DNA from: Chitinophagaceae bacterium
GTDB taxonomy: Bacteria; Bacteroidota; Bacteroidia; Chitinophagales; Chitinophagaceae
Reading direction: 5' to 3'
Assembly: GCA_027486835.1 (NCBI GenBank)
Contig: JAIXOJ010000135.1
Location: forward strand, 1 to 60,915
Length of the DNA: 60,915 bases
This document shows positions 1 to 57,928 of this stretch, piece after piece. Made by a program: the position numbers and the translations under genes. The notes under the pieces are model-generated. The model was not told where the DNA came from. It made no database searches and saw only the letters and a program-made list of their open reading frames with translations. Numbering within the stretch: the stretch's first letter is position 1; each line of letters starts with the position of its first letter.

Positions 1-243
1 CAGAGGGCTATCAGTTACAAACAGAGGGCTATCAGTTACAAACAGAGGGCTATCAGTTACAAACAAAGCCCTATCAGTTACAAACAGAGCCCTATCAATT
101 ACAATTAGAGGGCTATCAGTTACAAACAGAGCCCTATCAATTACAATTAGAGGGCTATCAGTTACAAACAGAGCCCTATCAGTTACAAGCAGAGGGCTAT
201 CAGTTACAAACAGAGGGCTATCGGTTACAATTAGAGCCCTCTG
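1..243. repeat. 21-bp tandem array A (runs off left edge)
   Basis: Eleven and a half head-to-tail 21-bp units, phased exactly at 1, 22, 43 and so on to 232. Units follow the pattern CAGAGGGCTATCAGTTACAA plus one base. Two variants are mixed: one carries AGGGCT, the other AGCCCT, and these are reverse complements, so neighbouring units of opposite type can pair. The last full unit and the terminal part-unit form a 9-bp stem (CAGAGGGCT with AGCCCTCTG, 211-243). One frame stays open through the array up to a stop at 299-301 but has no ATG, so I do not call a gene. The true left end lies outside the window. Confidence 0.95.
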
Positions 244-422
244 TTTCATTTTCATAGCACCTATTTTGGCAATTCCACCACTCTTTTTGCCAAAGAAGTA
301 ATTACTTTTTTGAGTTGTTGAAAATGTCATTTTTGCATTTCTCTCCCTACTCGCTATTATTTCTGCTAATTCGCTGTTGGTAGCTTTCGGATTAAGTAGT
401 AAATGTGGTAAGATTTGCTTTT

Positions 423-485
423 TTACAGGGTCATTTCCTGATTTTACAGGGTCATTTTGGGTAAATTGCTGGTCATTTTACTGAA
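423..485. repeat. 21-bp degenerate array G (three units)
   Basis: Three units at 423-443, 444-464 and 465-485. The first two share TTACAGGGTCATTT; the third keeps only GGTCATTTT at the same phase. The unit sequence is unrelated to array A 180 bp upstream, but the unit length is identical. The remaining non-coding sequence at 244-422 and 486-652 holds nothing else I can name. Confidence 0.6.
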
Positions 486-652
486 TCCGGGGCTTAAGGT
501 TTGGCAAGTTGTGGATTTTGCCTAACAAAAGCTTGTCAAAAAAGCGCATTATAAAGAGTAACTTCAAATTTACCTGAAAGCCCCCATTCCCCTTTACAGC
601 ATCAACTCCTTAAACTGTCTAGCACCGCACTACCCCAAATACCTACTGCACC

Positions 653-660
653 TTATCTTC
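653..660 (+). promoter_or_regulatory. Possible -7 element of the helicase gene
   Basis: TATCTTCG, one base from the Bacteroidota consensus TAnnTTTG, lies 6 bp before the ATG at 667. If it is used, the mRNA would be nearly leaderless. A similar TAnnTTCG stands upstream of lpdA. Confidence 0.3.
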
Positions 661-666
661 GCCCTT

Positions 667-3012
667 ATGCAGGATTATTTAAACGGATTGAATGCTCCAC
701 AGCGGGAAGCAGTAACGCATGTAAACGGGCCATTGATGATAGTTGCGGGTGCTGGCAGTGGAAAAACCAAAGTACTCACCACCAGAATTGCCCACCTGAT
801 GGCCAACGGGGTGGATGCTTTTAATATACTAGCACTCACTTTTACCAATAAAGCCGCTGCCGAAATGAAGGAACGGGTGAACAAAATTCTGAATAGCAAC
901 GAAGCGCGCAACCTCTACATTGGTACTTTTCACAGCGTATTTGCGCGCATCTTAAGGGCAGAGGCACATCGGCTTGGCTATCCCAATAATTTCACTATTT
1001 ACGATACCGACGATAGCCGCAGTGTGATTAAAACCATCGTTAATGAATTAAACCTAGACGATAAACACTATAAACCCAACATTGTGGGTAGTAGAATTTC
1101 TGGTGCTAAGAATGCCCTTATTGGCCCATTGGCTTATAGCACCGATACTTATATCCAGCAAGAAGATTTGCGCAACAAGCGTCCTGCAATGGCACAGATT
1201 TATGCGGGCTATTGCGCCCGTTGCTTTAAAAACGGTGCGATGGATTTTGATGATTTATTGCTAAAAATGTACGAAATGCTCAATACCCAGCCCGATGCAT
1301 TGAGCAAATACCAGCGCAAGTTTAAGTACATCATGATTGATGAGTATCAGGATACCAATGCCGTGCAATACCAAATTAGTAAGTTATTGGGGGCAATGAA
1401 TGAGAATATTTGTGTGGTGGGCGATGATGCGCAAAGCATTTACAGCTTCCGCGGTGCAACCATTGAAAATATTTTGCAATTTCAAAAAGACTATGATGAT
1501 GTGAAAGTGGTGAAGCTGGAACAGAACTACCGTAGTACCCAAAGCATTTTAAAAGTGGCCAATGAAGTAATTGGTCAAAACAAAGGGCAGATTCCTAAGG
1601 AATTATGGACCGACAACAAGGTGGGCGACAAAATAAAAATTGTTCGCACCATGACAGATAATGAGGAAGGCAAGTTTGTGTCTGACTGTATTCAAGAGCA
1701 AAAACTGCGCAACCACTACCATAATAAAGATTTTGCTATACTATATCGCACAAATGCACAAAGCCGGGCTTACGAAGAAAGTTTAAGGCGGATGGGGATT
1801 GCTTATAAGATTTACGGCGGCCTAAGCTTTTACCAACGCAAGGAAATTAAAGACATGCTGGCCTACCTACGTGTGGTGGTTAACCCAAGGGACGAGGAAG
1901 CCCTCAAACGGATTATCAATTATCCAGTAAGGGGTATTGGAAAAACCAGTTTGGAAAAATTGGCCATTGTTGCCAATGAACAAAACATTACACTGTTCGA
2001 AACAATTCAGCGGTCAGCAGAATTTGGATTTAAGGGTGGTACACAAGAAGCCTTGCAAAACTTCGTGACCATGATTCGCTATTTTCAAACCATGCTCTCC
2101 GAAAAGAATGCCTACGATGTAGCGGTGCAGGTGGGCAAACACACCAATTTGGTAAAAGAGCTTTTTTCAGACAAAACCACTGAGGGCTTGGCTCGATACG
2201 AAAACGTGCAAGAATTACTGAACTCTATAAAATATTGGACAGAAATACCCGATGGTGAAGATGGCGAAGTGGGTACTAAAGATTTGGGTGCTTTTTTGCA
2301 ACAAGTGACTTTATTTACTGATTCTGATACGGACACTGAAGACAAAGAAAGTGACGTGGTAAAGTTGATGACAATCCACGCTGCCAAGGGATTAGAATTT
2401 GGGTGTGTGTTTGTGGGAGGGGTAGAAGAAAATTTATTCCCCAATGCCATGAGCATTAACACCCGGGAAGAATTGGAAGAGGAACGCCGCTTGTTTTATG
2501 TGGCCGTAACCCGTGCAAAAGACAGACTGTGGCTCACTTTTGCTAATGCCCGTTACCGTTTTGGTCAGTTAGTACAAAACGAACCTAGCCGCTTTTTAGA
2601 GGAGATGCCAGAGCAGTTTTTAGATAGAAGCTATTCGGGTGGTGGCATGAAAAACCAAGGCATGAACAACATGGGTGGAGGCTTTCAGCACATGCAGCGA
2701 GGTTTTCCATCGCAGTCGCCTCCGCCTGCTTTCGAAAAAAAGAAAGAACCTAGCAAACCTGCTACACCTAGTTATTTGCCAGCTCAACCAACTGCTCCCA
2801 AAGTGGTAGAACACAAGCCCAGCGAAAATTTTGCACCCAGTGATACCAGCAATTTGCAAGTGGGGCAACAGGTGGAACATCAAAAATTTGGATTCGGCAC
2901 AGTTACTAAAATGGAGGGATCTGCGCATAATCCCATAGCCATTATTGAATTTGCCCATAATGGTGAAAAGAAAATCATGCTTAACTATGCCAAATTGAGG
3001 ATTGTAGAATAA
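667..3012 (+). CDS. pcrA: ATP-dependent 3'-5' DNA helicase, UvrD/PcrA (superfamily 1)
   Basis: A 781-residue SF1A helicase that unwinds DNA during nucleotide excision repair and mismatch repair and dismantles recombination filaments. Visible in order are the Q-motif region, Walker A AGAGSGKT (residues about 27-34), motif Ia GTFHSVFARIL, Walker B DEYQDTN, motif III GDDAQSIYSFRGA, motif IV EQNYRST and motif V TIHAAKGLEF. After residue 660 comes a low-complexity Gly/Met/Pro linker, then a small C-terminal domain (GQQVEHQKFGFGTV) like the Tudor-type RNA-polymerase-binding domain of PcrA. Length is usual for the family. The ATG at 667 is chosen because the helicase domain begins within ten residues. 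The next gene starts 54 bp after the stop, so the two may be cotranscribed. Bacteroidota often encode several UvrD-like proteins, so pcrA versus uvrD is a naming choice. Confidence 0.95.
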   Translation: MQDYLNGLNAPQREAVTHVNGPLMIVAGAGSGKTKVLTTRIAHLMANGVDAFNILALTFTNKAAAEMKERVNKILNSNEARNLYIGTFHSVFARILRAEAHRLGYPNNFTIYDTDDSRSVIKTIVNELNLDDKHYKPNIVGSRISGAKNALIGPLAYSTDTYIQQEDLRNKRPAMAQIYAGYCARCFKNGAMDFDDLLLKMYEMLNTQPDALSKYQRKFKYIMIDEYQDTNAVQYQISKLLGAMNENICVVGDDAQSIYSFRGATIENILQFQKDYDDVKVVKLEQNYRSTQSILKVANEVIGQNKGQIPKELWTDNKVGDKIKIVRTMTDNEEGKFVSDCIQEQKLRNHYHNKDFAILYRTNAQSRAYEESLRRMGIAYKIYGGLSFYQRKEIKDMLAYLRVVVNPRDEEALKRIINYPVRGIGKTSLEKLAIVANEQNITLFETIQRSAEFGFKGGTQEALQNFVTMIRYFQTMLSEKNAYDVAVQVGKHTNLVKELFSDKTTEGLARYENVQELLNSIKYWTEIPDGEDGEVGTKDLGAFLQQVTLFTDSDTDTEDKESDVVKLMTIHAAKGLEFGCVFVGGVEENLFPNAMSINTREELEEERRLFYVAVTRAKDRLWLTFANARYRFGQLVQNEPSRFLEEMPEQFLDRSYSGGGMKNQGMNNMGGGFQHMQRGFPSQSPPPAFEKKKEPSKPATPSYLPAQPTAPKVVEHKPSENFAPSDTSNLQVGQQVEHQKFGFGTVTKMEGSAHNPIAIIEFAHNGEKKIMLNYAKLRIVE

Positions 3013-9188: not shown

Positions 9189-12100
9189 CTATTCCACAGC
9201 AAGTGTAGTAGTAGCAACTACTTTGTTGGTGTCAGCAGACTGGATGCTGATGTTGTAAGCACCAGCAACTAATTTACTAGCCGTAGTAATAAGTTGTCCT
9301 GCATTGGTACCATTATGGTTAATGATGGATTCATGTACTTTTTGGCCTAAGCTGTTGTACATCGTCACTACATATTTACCAGCAACTGCTTCACTGCCTA
9401 AACGAACGGTTACCGATTTACCTACCATTGGGTTAGGATATACACTTAGGCTTGCAGCAGCTATTGGTGTAACAGTAGCTGTCTTTGCAGCAGCCTTAAA
9501 TAAAATGCTAAAGCGATTGGCGTAAGTAGCGGCATTAGCAGCATCTACTTGGAAGCTGATTTGGTTTGCTTCCGTTTTCAATGCGGTAGTAGTATTGCCA
9601 AACGCATCTGCCAAATACACATCTAATCCTTCTGCTTTATAAGCACTAGCATCGATGTTTAAAGAGTAAGTACTAGTGGTCATTTTATCAAGACTCAAAG
9701 GCACTATATCTTCTGCTTGTGCAGGTTGACGACCTTCGATGCTCAGCATTTGACCTTTGTTTACAATGGCTAGATTTTCTCCATTGTTCATCATTTTCAC
9801 AGCATCTTCAGTACGTATGTCGTTGCTAAAGCGGCTATCAAAAACCACTACCGATGCATCCATCTTTTTCCAGTCGCTACCTTCTGCTTTCATCAAGCTG
9901 ATGGCCAATTTACTTCTGCTAGCAGTAGAACCAAACACGGATGTTTTAGTTGAACTGATGGCTTTGTCGGCCTCCGTGATAGTTAAGCTAGGTGAAGTGC
10001 TAGCATTATTTTGTACAAATATTGCCTGACCAGCTTGTATGTAGCGTGCACCTGTTGCTAAGTTACTTGCCACGTCGGTAAAGGCGTTATACGTAACATA
10101 TGCTCCAGATGAACCGATAGTTGGGTCAAGATAGTAGTAAGCAGGTCTTAGATTCACAACTCGACCATTATCGTACATATTCTTCCAATCTATAGGTGCT
10201 ACATATGGGTTACCTACAGAACTAAAGCTGGTATCTGTAGTACCATTCAGACCAAATGAAGCACTATTATATGTTGAACCAGAAACTGTATTTGTAACTC
10301 CTGTTTTGGTATATACAACATTGCCTGTGATTAATCTTCCAGTTGCCCTTAACGCAGTTGAATTAACCATTAATAACATGCCTGTAGTGCCAACTGTAGA
10401 TATAGGAGTAGTGTATAAATTAAAGGTTCTATCACCACGTACTAACACACGATAACCAGTGTAAGGATTTAAGCTAGTAGTCTTCGTATTTGTAACAGCT
10501 GTCCATACCCCTGCATTACTAAAGTTGTAGGCAGATTTCACACTGTTTACTGTTTGGTCTAAACCATTGGTAGCATCAACTCCATGACTTGTAGTGGTTG
10601 CGGTTGTACCTGTAATGAATAGGCCATAACCAGCATTGCCATAACTACCACCCTCTTGCCAGTTGTTGTATATACTTCCAGCGTTGAATACACTAGCAGA
10701 CATATCTCTCCAAGCACGATAACCTTTAGGAATGTAACGCTCTACAATTACATTTCCGTTAACAGCACCCGATACTGGAGCAACAACAGCAGAGTTAGCA
10801 ATTGAGGTAGATTTCAAGGTAAGTAAACCATTTGTGGTAAGCGTACCAGTAGTCAGGTAAAGAACGCCTGTTACATTTAATTGTGTAGAAGAACCAGAGT
10901 TAATCGTTACACCAGCATTATTATTGATAGTTAGACTGTTTACACTAGTAGGTAAACCAGAACCAGTGATTTGCGCAGCAGTACCATTGTAAGTCACATT
11001 AATACCGTTAGCGATAGTCCTCGTATTAGTTCTAATGTTTCCAGTACTAGATCCTACAGCAGCTATACCCAAAGTAGAACCAACACTTAAGTTAGCCCCT
11101 GTCTTAATATTCACTTCCGTACCTGTAACTGTGTTGTTACCTAAAATCAATGTACCTCCGTTTTCAACAGTTAAAGTACCAGTAACGTCTAATGCATTAG
11201 AAAGGGTTGCCACACCAGTACTTGTTACCGTGACATTAATATAAGAGCCACTAATTGATTGCGTATTGCTTACAATTAGATTACCACGTGTTGTAAAGCT
11301 ATTTGCAGCACAGCCACTGTTAGTACCATTTGAATTTACTGGATTAACCTTCCAGTAATAGGTTGTTCCATTCAACAAACTAATACCATTAGTTAATGTG
11401 TTGTAAGAGGTAACACCTATTCCTTGAGCAATCCTTGCAGAAACACTATTTGTAGTAACTAATGCTTGGTTTGTACTTAAATAGACATCATAACCAGTAG
11501 GATTACCAGAACCAGCTGTCCATGAGAATGTAATGCCATCTGAAGCTAAAGAACCACTTGAGCCATTTGCAGGCGATACAATGCTTACACAAGAAGGTGT
11601 ACTACCAAGTGTGGAGAATTGGGCCGTGTTAGAGGAACATCCGGTCGCCGAACCATTAATACCAATAGCAGTTACTTTCCAGTAGTAGGTAGTACCAGCA
11701 GAAAAAGTATTAGCTGGTACAGTATAGCTAGTAGTAGAAACAGTTGTATTAACAATAGGACTTGTATAAGAAGAATTGTCTGCCAACACAACTGAGTAAG
11801 AGGTTGCATTGGTAGCAGCAGTCCACGTAAGAGGTGTTGTTACTTGAGCACTTCTAGAAGTACCTAAACTTACTAAACCAGTAGCACAACTAGGTAACGG
11901 TGTAGAAACAGTTATGGTGAAACCAGTACTAGGCGTAATACCACCAGAAGCACCACTATACACTCTTAGATAATAAGTATTTCCAACGACAGTGGTTAAA
12001 TCTTGAGATCTAGTTTGTCCAGCTCCAGTTGGAGTTAAACAAGTTCTATTGGTAGTTGCAGTCGAATTAGTGATACAAGAACCTCCGCCTGAACCACCAT

Positions 12101-15100
12101 TCCATAACTCGATTCCTAAATTGAACCCAGCACCTGGTACAACCGAAACATTGGTATAGGTTGACGTAGCAGTAAACTTGTACCAAACATCACCAGCAGA
12201 TGTACTACCACCACAATTTGCAGGAACATTAGCTGAAACAGTAGCGTTAGAAGTACTACCACTTGATAATGGTGTGCCAATAGTTAAAGCTATTGCTCCA
12301 CTACAATCATCATTAACTAATGGAACAGCTTTTGTCCAAGCACTGATGATTATGTTATCTGTAGTAGCCGCTGTACCTGTATTAATAACACGAGCTAGAA
12401 TTACCTGACCAACAGAGGTTGGAAGACATGCAGATACACAAGTTAATCCCGTAGCACTCATCGTTGATGTTGCACCATTAGCCGAGCTTGAAGTGGTAAC
12501 TGCATTTAATAAATCATATGTTGTGCCATCCCTTAATTCTAATTTTCCATCTACATTGCTAGAACCCAATAAGCGAACAAAAATGGAATCAGTAGTTGAT
12601 GTAGCCGTTATTTTATACCAAACATCTGACTTAGCTTTATTTGTATTTACGTTAGTTAAGCCATTGTTATTGGTGTAACCGTTTAGGGTTTGAGAAGCAT
12701 TAAAGTCAGTTGATTCACCAACTGGCAAAGAGGATAAATTACCTGAAGAACTTATCACAGATAATAAATCGGTTGCTGTAGTAGGTTCATCATTAGTAAC
12801 TGTTAATGCAGATGCACTATATGTTTGAACAGTAGTACCTGGAGTGAAACTTAAGGATGTATTCGCTTTTGGTACCCAAACATTTGAAACAGTAGTAGAT
12901 TGAGCAAAATTTAAGACCTGAGATGCTTGTTGGTTTAAATAAGTAGACCCAGAAGTATAATCTGAAATACCAAGTCTGTATGTCCAAGCGGTACTTGTAT
13001 TACCAATGTATGGCCACATGTCACCATAAACAAATTCAATCTTATTAGTCCCCTCATATAGTTTAACTTGAAAATTAAGGTTAGGTCCAGCATTTACAAA
13101 CTTCTCCATCCCTATCCATTCAACAGTTAGTACTCTACTACCGGTTGTGCCACTAATTTGGTATAAAATTGAACTATTCAAAGAATTTAGGATAACGCTT
13201 GAATTACCAGAATTACCAGAACCTGGATTACCCGCAGTTACTAAATCAGCTACAAATGGAGCCAAACATCTTGGGTGAACACTGATTGCAGTACTAGAAA
13301 TACTCGTTTGGTCTGTATATCCTTCATCCAAAACTACATAGCCATTAACATTTGCTCTTAGTGATGAAATTAATTTACCTTGATACCTAAAATTAAATCC
13401 ACTTGGTAATGTTAACGCGCCAGAGGTATTTTCATCAGTCGGGTATGTACCATTAATTGCCCAACCTGTAAAAGGACTACCTGTTTGAGCTATCGAAGAA
13501 TAACTAACATTAGTATTTCTAGCTATCGTGTAGGTGTTTAACGGTTGATTTTGTAATGTGAAGTTTGTACTAGCAGAGTAATTACTAGTGCTTCCACTAC
13601 ATGTACTGCCCACTTGTATTTCATAAGTATACCCACCTAATAATCCAGTTAAACTAATCGGACTTGCTGTTATACTTCCCGTTGTCCAAGTAGTGGTTCC
13701 TTGTACACGATAACGATATACATAACTCAAAGCAGCAAGATTACCAGTAAATGGAATGGATGCGGCCGTATTTGATGAAACAGTTGGAGTTCCAATTGTT
13801 GGAGGTGCACAGCCAACAACATTCACAGTTACAGTGGCTGAATTTGTACAACCATTAGAAGTAGCAGTTGCTTGATAGGTTGTACTGCTAGTTAAAGCCC
13901 CAGTATTATATGTTGATGCTGTTGACAAACTTGTGGTACTTGGTGGAATTGTCCAATTGATGGTACCAGCACTAACAGTAGCTGATAAGGCAGATGAAGC
14001 ACCTGTTAAAATATCCGTAGGATTAGCATTTACAGATATAGTAGGAGTGGCATTTACAGTAACAGTTCTGGTAGCAGTATTTACGCACCCTGTAGTTGAG
14101 TTAGTAGCAGTTAAAGTAAATGTTGTTGTACCAGCAGCTGACGGCTTAGCATAAACAGTATTAGCACTAACGCCTGTATAACTAGTCGTTGCTCCAGCAT
14201 TACTATATAAGTTAGTTACTGGAGACCATACGTAGCTATTATAATTCCCAATTGTACTAGTTACACTTAATCCATCAATACTTGTTCCAACACCACAAAG
14301 CGTAGAACCTGTATTTACAGTTAATGCTGGAGCAGTAGAATAATTTAATGCTATAGCGGTTCTACCTCCATTATTTGTACAAGTACCATTAGTAACTTCT
14401 ATATAATAGGTAGTACTTCCAAAAATAGTAGGCGTGGGATATGGTACACCTGTGTAAAGTAGATTTCCACCAGTTGAAGCATCGTACCACTTAACAATAT
14501 CATTAGATGTTAAAGACGCAACATTAGTTAGGGTAAGATTTTTTGATGTTGAACCACAAATAGACACAGGCGTCGAAACGGTTGGCTTTACTGGTAAAGG
14601 AAGTACTGTTATAGTAGTATCCGCAGTATTGCTACAACCATTCTGAGTAAATGTAACTGTATATTTTGTAGTAGAAGAGGGAGTAACATTGATCGTAGAA
14701 GTGGTTGCCCCACCTGGAGACCACAAATAGGTTACTCCTGTAGCATCAAAACCTTGAACATTAATAACGTAGTCCTGGGTTTGTCCTGAAGCAAAACTTG
14801 TGCAGGCATCAGTACTAGCAAAAGAGGAAGTTCTGGTTCTAATTCGCAAAACAGTAACCCCACTAGTAAGACTCGTAGGTAATGTAAATGACATAGAAGA
14901 ATTTGCAGGGTTAGAAGTACTATAAGCAAGAACTTCTACATATTCTGTTGACTCAAAAGTTCCACTTCTATCGTAGTCAATCCAGACACCAACTTGATAA
15001 GGAGAACCAGCATAAGTATTTGAAATTGTATAGGTAGACCCTGCATTTAGTGTAACCAAAGGAGAACTTGCAGAACCATATACATTATATGCAGTCGTAC

Positions 15101-18100
15101 TGGATGTTGTATAATTTAAAGAACCAACCGTTAAATTAGTGACATATGTTCCAGTGAACGAATGCAAGCTACTTCCAGTAACACAACTATAAGTAGGTAA
15201 TGTTTGAGGCCCAGAAGCTATGGTACCAGCTACCACACTTACTGAAGTAGACCCACCTGTACAAATTTGTGAATTAGTTGCATCAATACTTGCAGCAGAT
15301 GGCAGTACGTTTACAGTTGCAGTTAATGTACTAATTGTGGTACAAAAGCCATCATTTGCTGTAAGCGTATATATGATTGTACCAGTTGCTGTTGGTGTTG
15401 CAACTTTAGATGTATTACTTGTACTTGAGGTGCCTGCACCTGAAGGTAAACCGTTTCCTGTTGTAACGGAAGTCCAAGAATAAGCATAGCTAGTATTGGA
15501 GCTTGATACCGCCAAAGTAATATTTTGGCCAAAACAAGCAGTTGATGTAGAAGCATGACCGTTTATTGTTGCATTGACTGCTGTTGGTTGTGAAACTGTA
15601 ACATCAATTTGTGTTCTTGCACTTTCGCAACCTGATGCATTTACTATTGAAACCCAAAGAGAATTAACCCCTGCACTTACGGGGTAATTTGTATAAATAT
15701 AATCTCCACTGGTAGCACCTACTATTGCGGTTCCTCCAGAAGATACAGTGTACCACCTATAAGAAGAACCAGAACCTGCACCAGTAGCACGATAGGTAGG
15801 AATACCGCATTGTGCCGATACAGTGCTATTATTAGTTGGTGCGCTTGGTAGCGCATTCACCGTAACTGCCACACCATTAGATGAAATAGGACAACCTGAA
15901 ACAGTTGATGTTGCAGTGTATGTTTTAGTAGAAGTAGGAGATACCGTAAGCGGATTTGTAGTTCCAACTACACTTGTGCCATCAGACCATGAGAAGGCTG
16001 TTGGGGTAATTGACCCAACTCCGTAAAATGTTGTATTTAATCTAGATGTTGATAAAGAAGCAGAATTTGTAGCTGCTGTAGAGGTATAAGCGACCGTATT
16101 TGCTACAGTAGTTGTATAATAGGTTGTTGAATTATTAGTTGAATTTGCACCATTATGTACTACTTGTAATACAATATTAGAAGTTCCATCCCAATTAAAT
16201 GGTGCATCAAAAGTAATTACTTGTAACCCTGTAGCAGTATGGGTATATGTTTTTGGGGTGAAGACTGAAGTAAAACCACTAGTGGTATCTACAAATGCTG
16301 TTAAAGCAGTTAGTGTTGTATTACCAACTTTCACTCTAAAACTAGAATTAGTGGCCGCATCGCCGAGTGATGTGATATCAAAAGCTATAGCAGTTATATT
16401 ACCTGCAGCTAAACCAGCAGCTTGTAATTCGGCTGCAGTGTACAAAAGTTGCATTCTATAAGATCCCCATCTATTACAAAAAGCAGTTGGTTGACTAGTA
16501 GCACTAGTTAAACTTGTACCTGTACCAACAATTGCCGTTCCACCAGGCGCAAAAACAGATACACTCAAGTTTGTTGGAGAACCAGAACATATTGGATTTA
16601 CGGAAACACTTGCACTTGAACTTGCTCCAACTAAAGGATTTATTACTGTTACTTGAACTGTACTTGTATTAGAGCAACCCAATGTAGCGTCTATACCTGT
16701 GATTGTATATGTATAAGTACCCGCTGCTGTTGGCGTTATTGTAATATCTTTTCCTGATGTACCAGAAACTGAAATACCACTTCCAGCTTGGGGGCTAGCA
16801 GTCCAAGTATAAACATAAGTATTTGTCGTACCAGATTTTGTAGCACTTAAGTCAACAGTAGTACCTAAACAAACCCCAGAGGTCTTGCTTGCTGCGGCTG
16901 TTAATCCGTCCGCCGAATTTACTGTAACACTCACAGCTGTTCGTGAGCTTTCACATCCATTAACTATTTCAGTAACATAAAATATTGATGTAGTATTTAT
17001 AGATGTTTTATAGGTTGTTGAAGGATCTGTTTGCAATGCTGTTCCACCCGTAGCCGCAGCATACCAAGAGAACGATTTTGGCGTGTTAGACGTATTAGAA
17101 CTTACCGAAACTGTTGGTATTCCTGCACCACACTGAACAGAAGGAGTGCCAGCAGATGGGGCTGTTGGCAAAGCATTGACTGTAACAAGAGCACCTGTAC
17201 CAACAATAGTACAACCAGATATTGTAGCGGTTGGCGTATAAGTTTTTGTTGATGATGGCGTAACTGTTAGTGGATTGGTTGAACCAACAACAGTTGAACC
17301 ATCTGACCATGAATACGCAGAAGGAGTAGGTGCAAAATTTCCTGAGAAAGTAAATTTAGGCCTATTTGAATAGGTTAAATAAACTGTTGAACTACCACAG
17401 ATTGAGCTCCCTGACGTTGCAGTAGTGTTGTGAGCATTTACGCTACATACATAACTTGTGGCATCAGCTGTTACTGTATTTGATTGAGTTGCTGTGGTAC
17501 TACTATTACCCCAGCAGAATTTTAATAGTATGTTCGAAGTGCCATCCCATGCAAAGGCATTTGTAAAGGTTATTGTATTTGTTCCTATTACCGGGGTTAC
17601 GCCCGTTGAATTTGAGTAAACAGTTGTAAAACCAGTTGTAGCCAAAGTACTTAATGCAGTTGCAGACGTATGTTGAATACCTAAACTAAAGTCTGGCATT
17701 ATGGTAGTTCCAGAAGTTACAAATAAACTTAGTGCTGTAATGTTTCCCGCAGATAAACCAGCAGCCGTAAGTTCACTTGCTTTCACTAAAATTTGCTGTT
17801 GTGTATGAGACCATGAACTATTAAAAGGATTGTCGTATGTAGAGGCAGTACTTGCACCACTACCAACAGTACCAGATCCATTTTTTGTAAGAACTAAACT
17901 TAGGTTAGTTGAAGAACCTGCACAAATTGGACTTGCTGATGCAGTAGCACTTGCCGTAATTCCTGCTGTTGGATTAATAACTGTAATTTGGATTGTACTT
18001 GTATTTGTACATCCTCTATCAATATCTACACCTGTTATTGTATAAGTGTAAGTGCCTGAAGCTGTTGGCGTTATGGTTATCGCGCTTCCAGATGTTCCAC

Positions 18101-21100
18101 CACTTGGAACGCCACTACCAACTTGTGGACTTGCAGTCCATGTAAATACGTAATTATTGGTAGAACCAGATTGATTTACACTCAAGTTAATAGATGAACC
18201 TAGGCAGACACCAGTAGTTTGACTGGCAGTTGCAGTTAAACCGTCCGCACTATTTACAGTAACACTTGCTGGTGTCCTTGTAGCACTTTCACAACCACTA
18301 ACTGTTTCAGTAACATAGAAAGTTGTTGTGGCATTTATGGAACTAGAATAAGTTGTAGAACTAGATGTTTGAAGTGCCGTACCACCAGTTGACGCCGCAT
18401 ACCATGAAAAGCTTTTTGGTGTGTTGGAAGTATTTGAACTCACCGATACTGTTGGTATGCCCGAACCACACTGTACAGATGTTTCGCTGGCATTTGGTGC
18501 TGAAGGAAGTGGCTTAACAGTTACAACAGAGGACTGCAAAGAGCCGGAGCAACCATTTAATGTTGCTGTTGCAGTATAAGTTCCTGTTACATTTGACTCT
18601 GTTGCATTCGTAACTATTTGAGATGAAGATGAACCACTAGCAATCGCTGGTCCAGTTAATGTTGATGCCCATGACCACGCGTAGTTTGCAGAAGCATTTG
18701 TGCTAGCTGTGATATTCCAGTTGTATAAGAAATAATATGTTGTACTTGTACCACTAATATAACCACTAGTAATACTACCTACTGAACCTAAAGCATAGGG
18801 GAAACCGCCTAAAGAACTTTCTCTTACTAATGAAGCAGAACCAGAGGTAACCAGCAAACGATAAGCAGTACCTACAGGAACGCTCCAACCAAGAGCAGCT
18901 GTATATGGAGTAGTTGTTCCGATTACTCCCGTACCAGCAGGGGCTGTAAAGGTTGATGAAGTTTGGAGTACCGTACCAGTATTGTCTTGTAATTGAATAA
19001 CAAAAGTTCCAGAAGAAGTAGAACCATTGAATACGTCAACTGAATTCAAAGTAAATGCAGAAGAAGCATCGAATACCAAACCATAACTAAAAGGGGTAGT
19101 ATTTCCAATATTAGCTGGTGCAGTTCTTGCACCATTAAAAGTAGATTGTGAAAATATTGCTCCTGCCAATGAAACTGTAGAACCACTACAAACTGATGAA
19201 GGAGTCGCAGTTACACTAGTTATTACAGGATTTGCATTAACAGTAAATGATGCAGTAGCCGTCGCAGTACAACCACCACCTGTAGCCGTCAAGGTGATTG
19301 TTTCAGGAGAAGATGTTGCGGAGGTGCGTTTATAATAGATAGTGGTGAACGTACTTGTTGTTCCATCATAAGGAGTAGTAGCACTACTATTTGTATATAA
19401 ATTTGTGCTAGGACTCCAAATGTAACTACTATAATTTGACAATGTTGATGTTACGCTAATAGGAACTATTGTACCAACACAGGTAGTTTGTGACCCTGTT
19501 GGAGAAATAGTTACTGCTGTAGGGTCATTTGCAACCGCTGCACAAGCAACTCTTGGGCTTTCACAACCACTAGCATCGGTAACCGTAGCCCAATATGTAT
19601 TGGTTGCACCGCCACCTGTATATGTACCTGGGGTATATGCTAAAGATGTTGCACCAGCTATTGCCGAACCACCACTTGAAGCAGCATACCATTTAATGGT
19701 TGGACTGCTTACTTCTGTTGTGATGGTGTAGGTTGGCAAGCCACACTGTGGGCTTGTGGTTACATTTGTTGGAGATGCCGTTATTGCATTCACAGTAACT
19801 GAAACACCTGTAGCAGAAATGGTACAACCTGAAATATTTGCAGTTGGCGTATAAGTCAAGGTTGAAGACGGACTTATGACTAAAGGACTATTTGTACCAA
19901 TTACCCCTGTACCATTTGACCAAGACACTGATGATGGTGTTACTGGAGCAACACCATAAAAAGTTGTATTTAATCTGGTTGTTGCTAAAGATGCAGAATT
20001 AGTTGCAGCCGTTGAAGTATAGGCAACAGTATTTGCAACAGTAGAAGTATAATATGTAATTGAATTATTTGTTGAATTTGCACCATCATGCACCACTTGT
20101 AAAACTATATTGGAAGTTCCATCCCAATTAAAAGGCGCATCAAAAGTTATTACTTGCCATCCTGATGCAGTATGGGTATAGGTTTTAGGCGTGTAAACTG
20201 TTGTAAAGCCTGTGGTTGTATCAACAAATGCTGTTAATGCAGAGAGTGCTGAATTGCCAATTTTTACTCTAAAATTGGCGTTAGTTGCTGCATCACCAAG
20301 ACTGGTTATATTGAAAGCTATAGCTGTAATATTACCAGCAATTAAACCAGCTGCCTGCAACTCTGCTGCTGTATATAATTGTTGCATTCTATAAGATGCC
20401 CATCTATTACAAAAAGCAGTTGGTTGAGTTGTAGCCGTGGTTAATGTAGTGCCAGTGCCAACAATTGCAGTACCTCCAGGAGCTTTTACAGATACACTTA
20501 AACTTGTTGAGGAGCCTACACACACAGGACTTACAGAAGCAGCAGCGGTTGCCGCTGCGCCAGCTATGGGCAGATAAACATAACTAGATCCTATAGTAGT
20601 GGTAGATAGTGATAATGAGTTTGAGCTAGTAATACTCCATGTAACTGTTGTTCCACCTGAAGTTGGTTCTGGTATGGTGTAAGAATATGTTCCACTAGAG
20701 TTGGTCATTGCAAATGGACCTGCTGCTGTACCATTGTTATAACTAATTGTTACGCTAGTAATAGTTCCACTTGGCGTTGTAGGAGTTACAGAAATAACTG
20801 TACCAGAACCTGCAGTACAAACATTAGAAGGGACTGTTAAACTTGCATTGGCTGGTGCGGGCGAAACACCAACAAACTCGTCTGCCCCTACATCTGGATT
20901 ACTTGCGTTTCGAGTATTTCCATCAACATCATCTGTAATGCCAGAAATTGCTATACCGCCACCCTCACATCTAGTATTTAATGAATTAACTAGGTGTAAA
21001 AAGGAGGTTGAAGTGCCAGTAGCAGGACCGGTAAGACTTTGAAAGAAAACGCCTGCTGTTGAAGAAACAGTTTCTGTAAACGAATTACTTTCTCTGGGAC

Positions 21101-23423: not shown

Positions 23424-23484
23424 AATTACCATTTTTTATCAACAAACAACTAAGGGTTGTAACTCCGTACTTTTTATTCTTAAT

Positions 23485-24644: not shown

Positions 24645-24728
24645 ATTACTCAATCACGACGACTCATTACTCTATAATGACAGCTCATTTCTCTATCACG
24701 ACGGCATATTTCTCCACAATGAAACCTA
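24645..24728. repeat. 21-bp tandem array F (four units, meets the pyrD stop)
   Basis: Units at 24645, 24666, 24687 and 24708 follow the pattern ATTACTCAATCACGACGACTC, with ATTNCTC and the ACGAC block drifting. The phase is exactly 21 bp. The array touches the last codon of pyrD, whose stop is at 24726-24728, so the repeat ends where coding sequence begins. Confidence 0.65.
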
Positions 24729-28807: not shown

Positions 28808-29019
28808 AAATTGACTACTCTTTTGCATTGCACAAACATTCTTGAAAAGCATATAAAAGCAGTTATTCAGCAAAAAGAGTATGGTGGGGAAGCGAGTGCA
28901 TGATCGTTTTTCGCAGTTATCATTCCTCCAAAAAAATTTCTACACGCTCATTTTAGATGGGGTATGATACAAGTCTTTTTTGAATAGAATTTGGTTGATT
29001 TTTTTTACTGAATACCATT

Positions 29020-29345
29020 TTCGTGTGTAAAATGTCATTTCCAAGTGCTAAATGTCATTTCCGAGTGTAAAATGCCATTCCCGAGTGTAAAATGTTTTTT
29101 TCAGGTGTAAAATGTCATCTTTCAAGTGCAAAATGTCATCTTTCAAGTGCAAAATGTCGTCTTTCAGGTGTAAAATGTCATCTTTGAAGTGCAAAATGTC
29201 GTCTTTCAGGTGTAAAATGTCATCTTTCAAGTGCAAAATGTCATCTTTCAGGTGTAAAATGTCATTCCCTAGTGTAAAATGCCATTTTCAAGTGTAAAAT
29301 GTCATTTTCAAGTGTAAAATGCCATTCCCGAGTGCTAAATGCACT
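29020..29345. repeat. 20/21-bp tandem array B
   Basis: About 16 head-to-tail units of the type GAGTGTAAAATGTCATTTCC (20 bp) or AAGTGCAAAATGTCATCTTT plus C (21 bp). The 21-bp subtype forms the centre and the 20-bp subtype the flanks. The 20-bp type contains AAATGNCATTT, an odd-centred inverted repeat with 5-bp arms. The same unit builds array E at 57250-57928. Short heptad-coding frames on both strands are by-products of the 21-bp period. Confidence 0.95.
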
Positions 29346-29786
29346 ACTTGAAGAACTCCCATGAATGTACTTATCAATGAATCATGAGATTGTGCTCACG
29401 CTTCTTTGAAGATGTTTCCTGAACAGTACATTGAAATTGGAAAATTCCTTTTCTCAATCGCCCAACTTGATTGTTTATTTTCCGAAACAGCTCATTTCTA
29501 GTAAAAGATTGTCAAGCAGTTTTCCCGCAAAGCAAGGAATGTTTTGTATGCAAAGAAGACGCAAAGTGCTACGCTATTTAACGGTAAAACATTTCGCTTT
29601 TTGGATTTATAAGACATGGTTTAAAAGGGGTTTTAATATTAGATTCATTCTGCTTATTAAGAACATTCATTACTATAAAACAATGGCAGGTTGTGTCGAA
29701 ATAAGAACTTCTTTGTACTGAAAAATAGCCCTTTCAAAATTGTGCTGCACTTTTACGGCTCAAACAATTGTCTAAATACAATAAAA

Positions 29787-33958: not shown

Positions 33959-34210
33959 CTTGGAATTTACAACTCGATTCTGTGCTATATCCATGCTTTG
34001 AGTGTTTTTTGTTGCCATTTGTAATGCCCTTAATTGCGCTAATCAGTTTTATTCATAAAATAGGAAATGATCTTTAACTCAAACACAAAACGACTACTCA
34101 TATAAACAAATAAGAAGTGATAAGAAGGAGAAAATTGCTAATTACGAGAGAAACAACCAGATACTGACAAAATGTCTTGAAATAGCCCCAAAAAGCCTTT
34201 TGAAGCCCAA

Positions 34211-34399
34211 AAAATCGGTACAAATGTCCACCGTAATGCTTCAAACGAGCATCGTAATGCTTCAAACGAGTACCGTAATGCTTCAAACGAGCATCGAAAA
34301 ACTTCTATTCAATACCCTAAAGCTTCAACGGTGTACCCCATAAGTTCAAAGCAGGATTGAAAGAATTCAAGCGCGTATCCGATGGGTTCGATTGTGCTT
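34211..34399. repeat. 21-bp tandem array C with decaying flank
   Basis: Three near-identical units CGTAATGCTTCAAACGAGCA plus one base begin at 34232, 34253 and 34274. Five more units (34295, 34316, 34337, 34358, 34379) hold exact 21-bp phase but keep little beyond a central TTC and scattered bases. One weak unit precedes them at 34211. The array looks old at one end and young at the other. Confidence 0.8.
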
Positions 34400-34405
34400 G
34401 GTAGG

Positions 34406-34446
34406 TTGCATTAGTAGGTTGTTGGAAGTAGGTATTAAGTTATTTC
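34406..34446. repeat. Heptamer repeat copy abutting array C
   Basis: TAGGTTG, CATTAG, TAGGTTG, TTGGAAG, TAGGTAT, TAAGTTA: five 7-bp units and one of 6 bp. It follows directly on the degenerate end of the 21-bp array. Confidence 0.45.
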
Positions 34447-36274: not shown

Positions 36275-36282
36275 TACGTTTG
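36275..36282 (+). promoter_or_regulatory. Predicted -7 element of the ietAS unit
   Basis: TACGTTTG matches TAnnTTTG exactly and lies 21 bp before the ATG at 36304. This rules out the TTG start at 36280, which overlaps the element. Confidence 0.6.
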
Positions 36283-36303
36283 CAATACTTTAAAGATAAA
36301 GAA

Positions 36304-37305
36304 ATGAATCAGGCACTTTTAACTAGATTGTTTAAATCCATAGAAGGTGAAGAAAATTCGCCGATAATAAAAGTAGCTCAAAGCATCATTGAGGATGAAA
36401 AGGTAAGAGGTCATACAAATCTTGCCAACAAACTCAATAATATTTTACAAGAAAAATTTAGCAATAAATCTACAGATTACAAGCCTACTTTAAAAATAGC
36501 GCGAGAATCTGATTTTAATGTTCCACTTGATAGGAGGTATAGATTGCCTTTGGCAACTCACATTGAGAATGTGAACCTTAGGCACGATATGGTACTGTTT
36601 TCAGATGTAGAAAACAAAATACTTCGTATTGAGAAAGAATACCTTGCAAGGGAACGGCTGGCGCACCATGGATTAAAACCAAGAAAAAAAATTCTGTTAT
36701 ATGGGTCTTCTGGGTGTGGTAAAAGCATGGCTGCTGAAAGAATTGCATGGGATTTGGGCCTGCCTTTTTATAAAGTACGTTTCGACTCTATTATCTCATC
36801 TTATTTGGGAGAATCAGCCTCTAATTTGCAAAAGCTTTTCGAAAGCATCAATGAGTTTCCTTGCGTTTTGTTATTAGATGAATTTGATATTATAGGAAAG
36901 CAAAGGAATATAAACTCAAATGATGTTGGAGAAATCCACCGAATAGTAAATATTTTGTTGGGTTTATTGGAAGAATATAATGGAGAGGGCATTTTGATAG
37001 CAACTACAAATTTAGAAGGAACAATTGATAAAGCACTGTTTAGAAGGTTTGATGATTTTATTGAATTGCCAAAACCAACAGAGAAAGAAATTACTGAGTT
37101 GCTTAAAATATCTTTTTCTGCACTTAAACTAAGTCCTAAAATTAATCTTAAAAACTTTGCGCAACGAATGATTGGGATGTCTTATGCTATAGTAGTAAAA
37201 ATAGCAAATGATGCAGCTAAGAAAGCAATTATTCATTCTAAAACTGAAATTTCAATAGAAGACTTAAATCATTCATTGGAAGAAAATGAAACAATGAATA
37301 AATAA
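36304..37305 (+). CDS. ietA: AAA+ ATPase, IetA-like (defence / toxin-antitoxin partner)
   Basis: 333 residues. One AAA+ module: Walker A GSSGCGKS at residues 134-141, Walker B LLLDEFD with D192-E193, a sensor-1-like ATTNLEGTID, and the arginine-finger region ALFRRFDDFIELPKP, as in the FtsH/spastin-like ATPases. The first 100 residues are a family-specific helical N-domain. The gene is followed after 10 bp by a subtilisin-like protease gene. This order, ATPase then serine protease, is that of IetA-IetS: on Agrobacterium plasmid pTiC58 IetA is the antitoxin, and homologous pairs restrict phages. The DNA is AT-rich with many AGA and ATA codons, unlike the flanking genes, suggesting transfer. Confidence 0.85.
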   Translation: MNQALLTRLFKSIEGEENSPIIKVAQSIIEDEKVRGHTNLANKLNNILQEKFSNKSTDYKPTLKIARESDFNVPLDRRYRLPLATHIENVNLRHDMVLFSDVENKILRIEKEYLARERLAHHGLKPRKKILLYGSSGCGKSMAAERIAWDLGLPFYKVRFDSIISSYLGESASNLQKLFESINEFPCVLLLDEFDIIGKQRNINSNDVGEIHRIVNILLGLLEEYNGEGILIATTNLEGTIDKALFRRFDDFIELPKPTEKEITELLKISFSALKLSPKINLKNFAQRMIGMSYAIVVKIANDAAKKAIIHSKTEISIEDLNHSLEENETMNK

Positions 37306-37315
37306 AAAATACCGA

Positions 37316-45011: not shown

Positions 45012-45533
45012 TATCAGCGAAGGCGGGGAATGTATCAGCGAAGGTGAAGAATATATCAGCGAAGGTGAAGAATATATCAGCGAAGGCGAGGAATGTATCA
45101 GCGAAGGTGAAGAATATATCAGCGAAGGTGAGGAATGTATCAGCGAAGGCGAGGAATGTATCAGCGAAGGCGAGGAATGTATCAGCGAAGGTGAGGAATG
45201 TATCAGCGAAGGCGAGGAATATTTAGCAAGGTGTTGAACGTATCAAAAACAGTCAAGATTGTATCAAGAATAGTGTTGAACGTATCAAAAAGAGTCAAGA
45301 TTGTATCAAGAATAGTGGAGAACGTATCAAGAATAGTAAAAATTGTATCAGAATAGTGAAGAATCAATCAAGAATTGTAAAGAGTGTATCAGTAATAGTG
45401 CATAACAAGTCTCAAACAGTATTGATTGTATCACAAACAGTATTGATTGTATCACAAACGATATAGATTGTGTCAAAAACGATGTAGATTGTGTCAAAAA
45501 CGATGTAGATTGTATTTGCGAAGGACAATCAGA
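45012..45533. repeat. 21-bp tandem array D (25 units, two subfamilies)
   Basis: Ten near-identical units of TATCAGCGAAGGCGAGGAAT plus one base run from 45012 to 45221. After one 19-bp unit, 13 units of a second subfamily (TATCAAGAATAGTGTTGAAC type, later TATCACAAACAGTATTGATT) run from 45241 to 45512, nearly all exactly 21 bp. A last unit at 45513 returns to GCGAAGG. The shared skeleton is TATCA with a G and AGA at fixed positions. A translated frame gives heptads NISAKVK/NVSAKAR. The remaining intergenic sequence at 44779-45011 and 45534-45843 shows no gene. Confidence 0.95.
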
Positions 45534-55077: not shown

Positions 55078-55143
55078 TTGGAAGTATTGAAACGAACTAT
55101 TTAAAAATGAATTTATTTTATCAACCCCCTTTATTACAGCGTG

Positions 55144-55226: not shown

Positions 55227-55307
55227 AATTGCCTACCGAGTATCTAGAAACCGACTTTTTTCAAAGAAGCTATAATAGATTAATAGCATTCTAACTATAA
55301 CAACAAT

Positions 55308-55347
55308 AAAAAAGGCACTTTCTTCAATGGAGAAAGTGCCTTTTTTT
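55308..55347 (-). terminator. Terminator of pyrH
   Basis: A 15-bp stem (AAAAAAGGCACTTTC with GAAAGTGCCTTTTTT) and a 10-nt loop, 18 bp beyond the pyrH stop; T-tracts on both strands, so it can also stop transcription from topA. Confidence 0.88.
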
Positions 55348-55364
55348 ATGCTATTAATTCAAAC

Positions 55365-56081: not shown

Positions 56082-56310
56082 TTAAAAATCTTTTTGTTCG
56101 GCTGCAAATAACCCATTTTTTTACCCTCGTACCAAATGCAATGTCAGAGATAAATTGGGGGTGGCAAGTTGAGGGTTCATACACATAATAAAATTGACCT
56201 TAGATTTCGGCTATTATTGTACAAATGGCATTAAAGCGAAAGGGCTTAGGCTATACAAAGGCAACTATTGTGTAATAAGCATTAGAAATTGGGATGATAG
56301 AAATTCTAGG

Positions 56311-56352
56311 CATAAAAAAGCCCCAACAATGTTTTGCTGGGGCTTTTTTATG
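56311..56352 (-). terminator. Terminator of the helical hypothetical protein gene
   Basis: The arms CATAAAAAAGCCCCA and TGGGGCTTTTTTATG pair perfectly around a 12-nt loop, 15 bp beyond the stop of the 246-residue minus-strand gene. Confidence 0.9.
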
Positions 56353-56366
56353 ATTGAGGCGGTTGA

Positions 56367-57107
56367 CTATTCTTCTATGTAACCCAATTTTTCCCTTAAC
56401 TGAGGAAATTTTTTAAGGGCAATAATGGCGGTTTCCTTGAATTCAGCCATCCATTCGTTCAATTCATCATAAAGGGCATCTCTATCTTTTGTGGCTTTTT
56501 GGGCTTCTGCCGACTCTTTGTCTTTAGAAGCAGATAAAACTACCAAATCGTTAAACCCTTTTTGTTGGGCTTTTAATTCTGTATCAGTAACCCCTTTTTT
56601 GGCAAATGCTGCGATATAATCTGCATTATCGAGTGCACCATCATAGAACAATTTTCCTTGCTTTGCATAACCACTTTCCGAGGCACTTCTTATTCCTTTT
56701 AAACCAAGGGCCGATTTAGCGGCTGCATCATTTTTAAACAATCGGCGACCAAAAGTTAGATGATCTGCGTACTCTTCATCTAGTAATTCTACCTTTTTAT
56801 TATACTCTTCAGTGGCATCAAATTGTTCACCATATTCTTTTTTTTGTGCTTGATATAGCTTGTCTAAATCGGCAAACTGTTTCTGTTTGTCTAGAATCAA
56901 CGCTTTGGGGTATCCTCTTTTCTCCAACAAAGGCAGAATTTCCGAGTCTTGAGCATTGATAAGGGTTTTTTGTGAATCAAGAATGAATTCTGGAAGGGGT
57001 TTGTAAACCTTTTTCCTTTTCTTTTTAGGTTTGGTTGAGCCTTTGCTTTTGGCTTGGCTACTTTCATCATTTACATTTTCTAGCGGAGCATTATTTAAAT
57101 TTTCCAT
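56367..57107 (-). CDS. Hypothetical helical protein
   Basis: 246 residues, function not recognised. No signal peptide. The first 40 residues are low-complexity and end in a basic run (KPKKKRKKVYKPL); the rest is almost entirely helical by inspection, rich in Lys, Glu, Ala and Leu. Two halves can be seen: residues 45-130 (LLEKRGYP to LFKNDAAAKSALGLKGI) and 135-246, with GVTDTELKAQQKGFNDL then AQKATKDRDALYDELNEWMA. The pattern of a helical bundle with a late ATxxRDxLYxELxxW segment is shared with the N-terminal part of the 322-residue protein at 35020. It is monocistronic, with its own promoter element and terminator. Coiled-coil or structural roles are possible, but no function is claimed. Confidence 0.8.
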   Translation of the reverse strand: MENLNNAPLENVNDESSQAKSKGSTKPKKKRKKVYKPLPEFILDSQKTLINAQDSEILPLLEKRGYPKALILDKQKQFADLDKLYQAQKKEYGEQFDATEEYNKKVELLDEEYADHLTFGRRLFKNDAAAKSALGLKGIRSASESGYAKQGKLFYDGALDNADYIAAFAKKGVTDTELKAQQKGFNDLVVLSASKDKESAEAQKATKDRDALYDELNEWMAEFKETAIIALKKFPQLREKLGYIEE

Positions 57108-57150
57108 TTTGAAATAATTTTTATTGAATTACAATATTTTAGTCATAGGG

Positions 57151-57158
57151 CAAAAGTA
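57151..57158 (-). promoter_or_regulatory. Predicted -7 element of the 246-residue protein gene
   Basis: TACTTTTG on the minus strand followed by CCC, 43 bp upstream of the ATG at 57107; an exact TAnnTTTG match. Confidence 0.5.
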
Positions 57159-57249
57159 AGGGAGAATTTTATATCCTTATATGTGGTGTTCAATTATTTT
57201 TTTGTTAATGATTTAAAGCAATTAGGAGGGTTATTGGGGAAGGTATTTC

Positions 57250-57928
57250 GAGTGTAAAATGTCATTTCCGAATGTCAAATGCCATTTTCGAGTGTAAAAT
57301 GTCATTTTCGAGTGTAAAATGCCATTTCCGAGTGCAAAATGTCATTTTCGAGTGTAAGATGCCATTTCCGAGTGCAAAATGTCATTTTCGAGTGTAAGAT
57401 GCCATTTCCAAGTGTAAAATGTCGTGTCCGAGTGTAAAATGTCATTTTTCAGGTGCAAAATGTCGTCTTTCAGGTGCAAAATGTCGTCTTTCAGGTGCAA
57501 AATGTCGTATCCGAGTGTAAAATGTCATCTTTCAAGTGCAAAATGTCGTCTTTCAGGTGTAAAATGTCATCTTTCAAGTGCAAAATGCCATTTCCAAGTG
57601 TAAAATGCCATTCCCGAGTGTAAAATGTCATTTCCGAGTGCAAAATGCCATTCCCGAGTGTAAAATGCCATTTCCGAGTGCAAAATGCCATTCCCGAGTG
57701 TAAAATGCCATTCCCGAGTGCAAAATGCCATTCCCGAGTGCAAAATGCCATTCCCGAGTGCAAAATGTCAATCCCGAGTGTAAAATGTCATTCCCGAGTG
57801 TAAAATGTCATTCCCGAGTGTAAAATGTCATTCCCGAGTGTAAAATGTCATTTCCAAGTGCAAAATGCCATTTCCCAAGGCAAAATGTCATTTCCAAGTG
57901 TAAAATGCCATTTCCAAGTGCAAAATGC
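57250..57928. repeat. 20/21-bp tandem array E (same unit as array B)
   Basis: About 33 units, mainly GAGTGTAAAATGTCATTTCC or GAGTGCAAAATGCCATTCCC (20 bp). A central patch of 21-bp units with CTTTCAGGTGCAAAATGTCG lies at about 57440-57590. Most units contain ATGNCAT, many the longer AAATGNCATTT. It is the longest array in the window and shares its unit with array B, 28 kb away. Confidence 0.95.

What the first reader, a model, noticed from the sequence alone, without database searches (positions are those of the whole stretch)
1..57928. Seven intergenic tandem arrays with different sequences but one locked 21-bp period
Seen directly: arrays at 1-243, 423-485, 24645-24728, 29020-29345, 34211-34399, 45012-45533 and 57250-57928. 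At least five unit sequences are unrelated, yet unit length is 21 bp, or 20 in many units of two arrays. All lie between genes. Slippage alone would not fix one length for unrelated sequences. A shared length points to a mechanism or function that measures 21 bp: two helical turns for an array-binding protein, a polymerase or repair step with that footprint, or translation of heptads. I know of no described system that matches; that part is my judgement, not a search.
Basis: partly seen in the sequence, partly recalled or inferred. Interest (0 to 1): 0.8.

Follow-up and report, generated by a model that had tools for sequence, protein, structure and literature searches.

The report
Intergenic repeat arrays locked at 21 bp
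A bacterium related to Chitinophagaceae, and its sister species, carry many tandem repeats, mostly between genes, whose sequences are unrelated but whose unit is usually about 21 bp or its double, which suggests that something in these cells measures two turns of the DNA helix when repeats are made or kept.

Summary
In 52 further stretches of the same genome, 41 of 89 arrays with three or more copies have a 20-22 bp unit and 17 a 40-43 bp unit. One vote per unrelated sequence (window included), 52 of 64 clusters with period 15-60 bp fall in these bands; in congeneric genomes 24 of 24 do. Other genera of the family (0 of 13) and other Bacteroidota (1 of 22) lack the lock. Units are shared between species at most slightly above chance, show no 10.5-bp phasing and no sign of coding selection. 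With ORFs of 150 aa or more, 61 of 66 locked arrays lie outside ORFs, against 14 of 30 of other periods. No reverse transcriptase, Ku or over-cut-off IS21 transposase was found in this genome. Best reading: a genus-specific amplification step, largely blind to sequence, with a two-turn register, arrays being tolerated between genes; the enzyme is unknown. Heptad translation is not supported; a binding-platform function is untested. Closest published parallel: Borg tandem repeats, for which I saw no such lock in the passages read.

The parts
1..243 (.). 21-bp array (CAGAGGGCTATCAGTTACAAA), at the contig start, 5' of uvrD (667-3012)
   Evidence: TRF 1-230, 11 copies, 86% matches; units printed; UvrD by Pfam
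423..485 (.). weak three-unit 21-bp repeat (two good copies, one diverged)
   Evidence: printed; lag-21 hit 421-457; not listed by TRF at score 30
24645..24728 (.). weak 21-bp array at the 3' end of a dihydroorotate dehydrogenase gene (24726-25784, minus)
   Evidence: TRF 24645-24705, 2.9 copies; DHO_dh
29011..29345 (.). mixed 20/21-bp array of the AAATGYCATTTYC family between divergent genes (26010-28616 minus; 29691-31196 plus)
   Evidence: same family as 57245-57927
34160..34433 (.). 21-bp array with short flanks, dispersed in the genome
   Evidence: TRF; 84% over 282 bp to L005, and 34141-34328 85.7% over 189 bp to L011
45012..45220 (.). 21-bp array TATCAGCGAAGGCGAGGAATG, with 63-bp higher-order period
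45231..45515 (.). adjoining 21-bp array GTATCAAAAACAGTAAAGATT, with 42- and 83-bp higher-order periods
57245..57927 (.). 20-bp array of the AAATGYCATTTYC family with a central 21-bp block
   Evidence: 15 matches in the genome including itself, 8 with E below 1e-100

Best explanation
These are mainly intergenic minisatellites made or enlarged in this genus by a process largely blind to sequence but with a fixed register of about two helical turns (20-22 bp) and its double (40-43 bp). Arrays arise at many places, grow and homogenise in whole units (with 42- and 63-bp higher-order forms), sometimes disperse with short flanks, and are replaced so fast that sister species share the length but hardly any units. 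Shown: the lock, its restriction to the genus among the genomes sampled, species-specific units, mainly intergenic location. Inferred: that the length is set at birth or expansion and not by selection on a function, and that an enzyme or DNA-bound complex spanning about 21 bp (for example a replisome or repair complex, or paired nicks on one face of the helix followed by fill-in) is the ruler. The enzyme is not identified.
For: Period lock per unrelated cluster: own genome 37 of 64 clusters (period 15-60) at 20-22, 35 of them exactly 21, and 15 at 40-43; congeners 15 and 9 of 24. Unit spacing inside 44 own arrays: 383 of 413 exactly 21, 25 at 20, 5 at 22. Forty-nine clusters from 65 21-bp arrays, with pairwise likeness close to that of shuffled units. 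Between-genome similar pairs 4 of 2549, against 0-2 in five shuffles; within genomes 65 of 2401, 63 of them in the own genome, whose sample includes eight stretches chosen for one family. Two-copy repeats also peak at 21 (15 of 35 in own). Some 41-bp arrays show no 20/21-bp sub-period (10 clusters, shift-20 Z -1.1). Flanking-gene orientation follows background (28 tandem, 12 divergent, 9 convergent) when ORFs of 80 aa or more are used.
Against: Most two-copy 21-bp cases are edges of degenerate arrays; few are isolated, so locked births are thinly supported. Arrays are richer in G+C than their non-coding flanks (mean 42.0 vs 36.2%; higher in 30 of 44), so units are not a plain sample of the local sequence. 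TTCCG is over-represented (9 of 52 own clusters, 1.8 expected, uncorrected) and palindromes are in mild excess. Ku is absent from G000 and found in 1 of 13 genomes of the genus, so Ku-dependent joining after fill-in is not available. With stricter ORFs divergent gaps were in excess (19 of 35), which would fit regulation, but not with shorter ORFs. Counting two-copy repeats as well, 21 is the commonest single period also in the other named Bacteroidota (13 of 86, beside 18 with 10 and 15 with 8), though not among arrays with three or more copies. Congeners carry many 7/14-bp arrays (19 of 49), and 21 and 42 are multiples of 7. No candidate ruler was found.
Confidence: 0.45

Rival explanations
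1. The arrays are functional platforms: a protein, or a set of them, binds side by side on one helix face every two turns, and selection keeps the 21-bp spacing while the sequence is free or recognised by different paralogues.
For: Spacing held to 21 plus or minus 1 in 413 intervals; locked class mainly between genes; arrays with different units lie 5' of uvrD in own and in 4 of 11 congeneric loci, one with only 2.2 copies; units richer in G+C than flanks.
Against: No common motif beyond TTCCG in 9 of 52 clusters; no 10.5-bp composition phasing; gene orientation as background; long runs of 20-bp units would drift out of phase with a 10.5-bp helix (units; inference); the uvrD count is small.
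Confidence: 0.23
2. All arrays descend from one old satellite that spread through the genome; sequences turned over by concerted evolution while unit length, which changes only by coordinated indels, persisted.
For: Families are dispersed with flanks; neighbouring alike arrays at 45012-45515; higher-order 42/63-bp forms; TTCCG excess; array G+C above that of flanks; 4 between-species pairs against 0-2 shuffled.
Against: Between-species unit likeness near chance; length does drift between 20 and 21 within one family, so total loss of sequence likeness with retained length needs an added constraint.
Confidence: 0.19
3. The arrays are ends or derivatives of transposons with multiple 20-22 bp transposase sites (IS21, Tn7 or Mu type).
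For: Unit length similar to such sites (recalled); array families dispersed.
Against: No IS21 transposase over cut-off in this genome, two weak partial matches; many unrelated units; arrays run to 34 copies. Tn7/Mu-type transposases were not searched.
Confidence: 0.06
4. Assembly artefact related to k-mer size.
For: Draft genomes; 12 of 53 own sequences begin within an array.
Against: Units within arrays differ by many substitutions; the lock occurs in congeneric records with different contig-name styles (titles of L021-L024); arrays also lie well inside contigs.
Confidence: 0.03
5. Translated heptads or coding repeats.
For: 21 is divisible by three; with ORFs of 80 aa or more and none discarded, 34 of 66 locked arrays fall in an ORF.
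Against: The 40-43 bp class and 20/22-bp units break frame; open frames as in shuffled units; with ORFs of 150 aa or more only 5 of 66 are inside.
Confidence: 0.02

Closest known systems
Tandem repeats of archaeal Borg elements (PMC9879509; abstract and passages seen)
   Same: Pervasive arrays, each with its own sequence, very rarely shared between related genomes, arising independently and recently, many intergenic, often ending contigs. One intergenic example described there has 20-nt units and one of 21 nt.
   Different: Borg units are perfect copies and 43-65% lie in ORFs; 14-38% of intergenic unit lengths are divisible by three, and no lock to one length appears in the passages read (length figure S4 not seen). 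Here units are diverged, mainly intergenic, and locked at 21 and 41-42.
TAACTGA heptamer repeats of Beggiatoaceae, Cyanobacteria and some Bacteroidetes (PMC4679880; abstract and passages seen)
   Same: Intergenic direct repeats with a fixed unit length, also in some Bacteroidetes; 21 = 3 x 7, and congeners here carry 7/14-bp arrays.
   Different: One conserved 7-bp sequence there; here unrelated 21-bp units with no 7-bp sub-period in the own genome (shift-7 Z 0.8).
Bacterial VNTRs / minisatellites formed by slippage (recalled)
   Same: Head-to-tail units, higher-order periods, tolerance between genes.
   Different: No single unit length is expected; a lock was absent in the other Bacteroidota sampled.
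Multiple transposase-binding end repeats of IS21/Tn7/Mu (recalled)
   Same: Repeated sites of about 20-22 bp.
   Different: Not tied here to a transposase gene; many unrelated units.

Membership tests
Bacterial minisatellite / VNTR | Head-to-tail repeats of a unit over about 10 bp | tested here: met
Bacterial minisatellite / VNTR | Copy number varies between strains | not testable with these tools
   No close strain; nearest relative 88% amino-acid identity in the G6PDH protein
Borg-type tandem repeats | Units unique to each array and rarely shared between related genomes | tested here: met
   (with some dispersed families in the own genome)
Borg-type tandem repeats | Perfect identity of units | tested here: not met
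   units diverged
Borg-type tandem repeats | About half inside ORFs | tested here: inconclusive
   5 of 66 with ORFs of 150 aa or more, 34 of 66 with ORFs of 80 aa or more, none discarded
IS21 ends | Repeats flank an IS21 transposase gene | tested here: not met
   no IS21 transposase over cut-off in G000; congeners not searched
Tn7/Mu-type ends | Repeats flank a TnsB/MuA-type transposase | not tested
   -
TAACTGA-type heptamer arrays | 7-bp unit or sub-period | tested here: not met
   no shift-7 excess in own units; one own and two congeneric clusters reach 0.5 identity at shift 7
CRISPR arrays | Repeats separated by unique spacers | tested here: not met
   units directly abut
Protein-coding repeats | Frame kept open by selection | tested here: not met
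   open frames equal shuffled units

The most novel reading that the evidence does not exclude
This genus has a molecular ruler, an enzyme or DNA-coating complex spanning two helical turns, that duplicates or fixes DNA in steps of about 21 bp (and 41-42 bp) whatever the sequence, making a bacterial satellite-DNA system in which length is inherited and sequence is not.
Probability: 0.3. Interest if true: 0.88.

Novelty: new variant of a known kind. Interest (0 to 1): 0.62.

Why it matters
How tandem arrays are born, and what sets their unit length, is to my knowledge an open question. A bacterial genus in which unrelated arrays share one length, while the related genera sampled lack it, gives a natural comparison for finding a length-setting factor, or for showing that selection for two-turn spacing keeps arrays. 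It would also change how intergenic repeats are read in environmental genomes, where they break assemblies.

Tried and rejected
Heptad coding: not supported. Composition phasing at 10.5 bp: harmonic-2 Z between -0.2 and 1.8. Seven-bp origin: shift-7 Z 0.8 in own, 1.6 in genus units. In-place inversions between units as a sign of hairpin template switching: 12 unit pairs in 4 arrays against 26 in 4 arrays for the plain-reverse control, so not supported. Divergent-promoter enrichment: 19 of 35 with ORFs of 110 aa or more, 12 of 49 with ORFs of 80 aa or more, as background. Reverse transcription: no RVT_1 match in G000; 5 of 12 congeners have one. Ku-dependent joining: no Ku in G000 and in 12 of 13 genomes of the genus, while 8 of 11 genomes of other genera of the family have it; Ku loss alone does not explain the lock, since the small stretches seen of Ku-less relatives (G022, G023, G017) show no 20-22 bp array with 3 or more copies. 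SbcD: over cut-off in G000 and in 3 of 12 congeners, so its presence does not follow the arrays. Y1 transposases: no clear pattern. IS21: none over cut-off in G000. Empty-site comparison through paralogous flanks: paired flanks were found, but no clear array-free site was established. Viral contigs: no match to a two-unit pattern of the 20-bp family. Rfam: nothing at gathering score. DNA-level comparison with congeneric loci gave 14 matches, none of them over a window array. Correction made on re-check: one search dropped array-dominated ORFs for the locked class only, which favoured an intergenic result; applies one rule to both classes and replaces it here. Script failures: one search stopped with an error after printing its counts; one search stopped before the genus part, so palindrome figures are for the own genome only and count one L204 array three times.

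Papers: ten searches listed no paper whose title or abstract start describes a 21-bp lock; the library is open-access PubMed Central only. PMC9426551 (passages) reports intergenic tandem repeats linked to deletions in lake Planctomycetota; of PMC9879509 and PMC4679880 I saw the abstract and passages; other papers only as listings.

Full report
What was claimed and what is there. The window is bases 1-60915 of contig 46 of a 6.4-Mb draft genome in 219 contigs. The four best named relatives are metagenome bins, two titled Chitinophagaceae, one Chitinophagales and one Flavobacterium. All seven places exist. Five are clear; 24645-24728 and 423-485 are weak. The 29020 and 57250 arrays belong to one family, AAATGYCATTTYC, and 45012-45533 is two adjoining arrays with partly alike units. 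The larger units that TRF reports in the window at 34230, 45010 and 45236 (42, 63, 83 bp) have a 21-bp fundamental.

Genome-wide lock. I took 60 stretches of the own genome; eight (L156-L163) were chosen because they hold the 20-bp family and are left out of the counts that follow. In the other 52 stretches (808,752 bp) TRF finds 89 arrays with three or more copies: 39 with a 21-bp unit, one each with 20 and 22, and 17 with 40-43 bp. A first-order Markov control of all own stretches and the window (1,008,615 bp) gives none with three copies. Giving one vote to each group of alike units (window included), 75 groups remain of 90 arrays; of the 64 groups with period 15-60 bp, 37 are at 20-22 (35 exactly 21) and 15 at 40-43. 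Inside 44 arrays of 21 bp, 383 of 413 unit spacings are exactly 21, 25 are 20 and 5 are 22. All own stretches but two begin at a contig start, and 12 of the 53 own sequences used begin within an array, so array density is inflated; I make no genome total from it.

Restriction to the genus. In 40 stretches from congeneric genomes (570,910 bp) 49 arrays have three or more copies: 15 at 20-22, 9 at 41-42, 12 at 7 and 7 at 14 bp. By cluster, with loci L021-L024 added, 24 of 24 with period 15-60 are at 20-22 or 41-42. Ten of 12 congeners show at least one array of the two classes; G005 and G009 did not in the sequence seen. In 20 stretches of other genera of the family (346,620 bp) 0 of 13 arrays with three or more copies are in the two bands, 7 being 7-bp; in 76 named loci (L025-L100) of other Bacteroidota (1,419,760 bp) 1 of 22 is. 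Against this, when two-copy repeats are counted too, 21 is also the commonest single period of the named loci (13 of 86), next to 18 (10) and 15 (8), a pattern that coding repeats would give (the coding reading is inference).

Nearly sequence-blind. Sixty-five 21-bp arrays (own plus genus) form 49 clusters, and the likeness between clusters is close to that of shuffled units. Among 100 arrays with 20-22 bp units (2.5 or more copies; own sample including the eight chosen stretches), 65 of 2401 within-genome pairs are alike (63 in the own genome) but only 4 of 2549 between-genome pairs, where five shuffles gave 0-2. So families spread inside one genome, but sister species share the length and hardly any units. 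Departures: TTCCG in 9 of 52 own clusters (1.8 expected, uncorrected); palindromic stems in mild excess (Z 4.3 for 20-22, 3.65 for 40-43; own genome only, families not independent); and array G+C above that of non-coding flanks (42.0 vs 36.2%, higher in 30 of 44). There is no composition phasing at 10.5 bp and no 7-bp sub-period in own units. Unit G+C ranges from 24 to 67%.

The double length. The 42-bp arrays often keep a 21-bp likeness (0.57-0.95 identity at shift 21), as expected of higher-order repeats, but the 41-bp arrays (and some of 42) do not (0.1-0.4). They may be dimers diverged beyond recognition or a primary second length. Their existence, and units of 20 and 22, speak against reading frame as the cause.

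Place. With ORFs of 150 aa or more and none discarded, ORFs cover 78.3% of the unselected own sequence; 61 of 66 arrays of the locked class (60-63 bp included) lie outside them, against 14 of 30 arrays of other periods. The result depends on the rule: with ORFs of 110 aa or more it is 44 out and 22 in, and with 80 aa or more 32 out and 34 in, unless ORFs that are themselves at least half array are discarded (60 out and 6 in at either length). Since open frames are no more frequent than in shuffled units, I read the short ORFs as by-products of repeats. Orientation of neighbouring genes is as in the background (28 tandem, 12 divergent, 9 convergent; 34 further merged arrays had no gene on one side within the stretch and 9 lay inside ORFs). 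An earlier count with longer ORFs suggested divergent enrichment (19 of 35). Upstream of uvrD, own and 4 of 11 congeneric loci carry arrays, each with a different unit, one with only 2.2 copies; this may be chance at such density.

Mechanism. In the own genome the searches gave no reverse transcriptase domain, no Ku and no IS21 transposase over cut-off, while SbcD is present. This leaves replication or repair steps that span about two turns, selection for two-turn spacing, or descent from one satellite. I favour the first because length is nearly all that is shared, because sister species have unrelated units, and because two-copy repeats peak at 21 too (15 of 35 in own), though most of those are edges of degenerate arrays. 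The step is inferred; no ruler was found. Inside an established array, growth in whole units and higher-order forms is ordinary satellite behaviour. Some families then spread with short flanks.

Comparison. Borg tandem repeats are the nearest published parallel that I found in being many, independent and sequence-unique; they differ in perfection and, in the passages read, in having no stated length lock. TAACTGA repeats are one conserved heptamer. I class the finding as a new variant of bacterial minisatellites whose distinguishing trait, a nearly sequence-independent unit length limited to one genus among those sampled, did not appear in the listings of ten searches of open-access papers.

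Noticed in passing
congeneric loci, e.g. L124:4923-5016, L222:841-893, L240:2551-2603: Arrays of 7- and 14-bp units (TAACCAC, ACTTTCG, AATTAAT) are common in congeners (19 of 49 arrays) and in the family (7 of 13 with 7 bp) but rare in the own genome (3 of 89).
   Followed up: partly
own genome, e.g. L199:11651-11860, L009:4531-4731, L006:18418-18613: Many dispersed non-coding repeats of about 200 bp besides the arrays; the largest linked group has 57 bins.
   Followed up: partly
G000 and congeners: Ku is missing from 12 of 13 genomes of the genus but present in 8 of 11 genomes of other genera of the family; SbcD is over cut-off in 4 of 13 genomes of the genus.
   Followed up: partly
window 1-243: Units alternate AGGGCT and AGCCCT, its reverse complement, at one place; a general test for larger swaps of this kind showed no excess.
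   Followed up: partly
window 60352-60913: 153-bp repeat array overlapping the ORF 58829-60820 (minus), apparently a coding repeat.
   Followed up: no
window 9189-23432: ORF of 4747 aa on the minus strand, not analysed.
   Followed up: no
window 36280-39766: AAA ATPase gene directly followed by a subtilase gene, a possible two-gene module.
   Followed up: no
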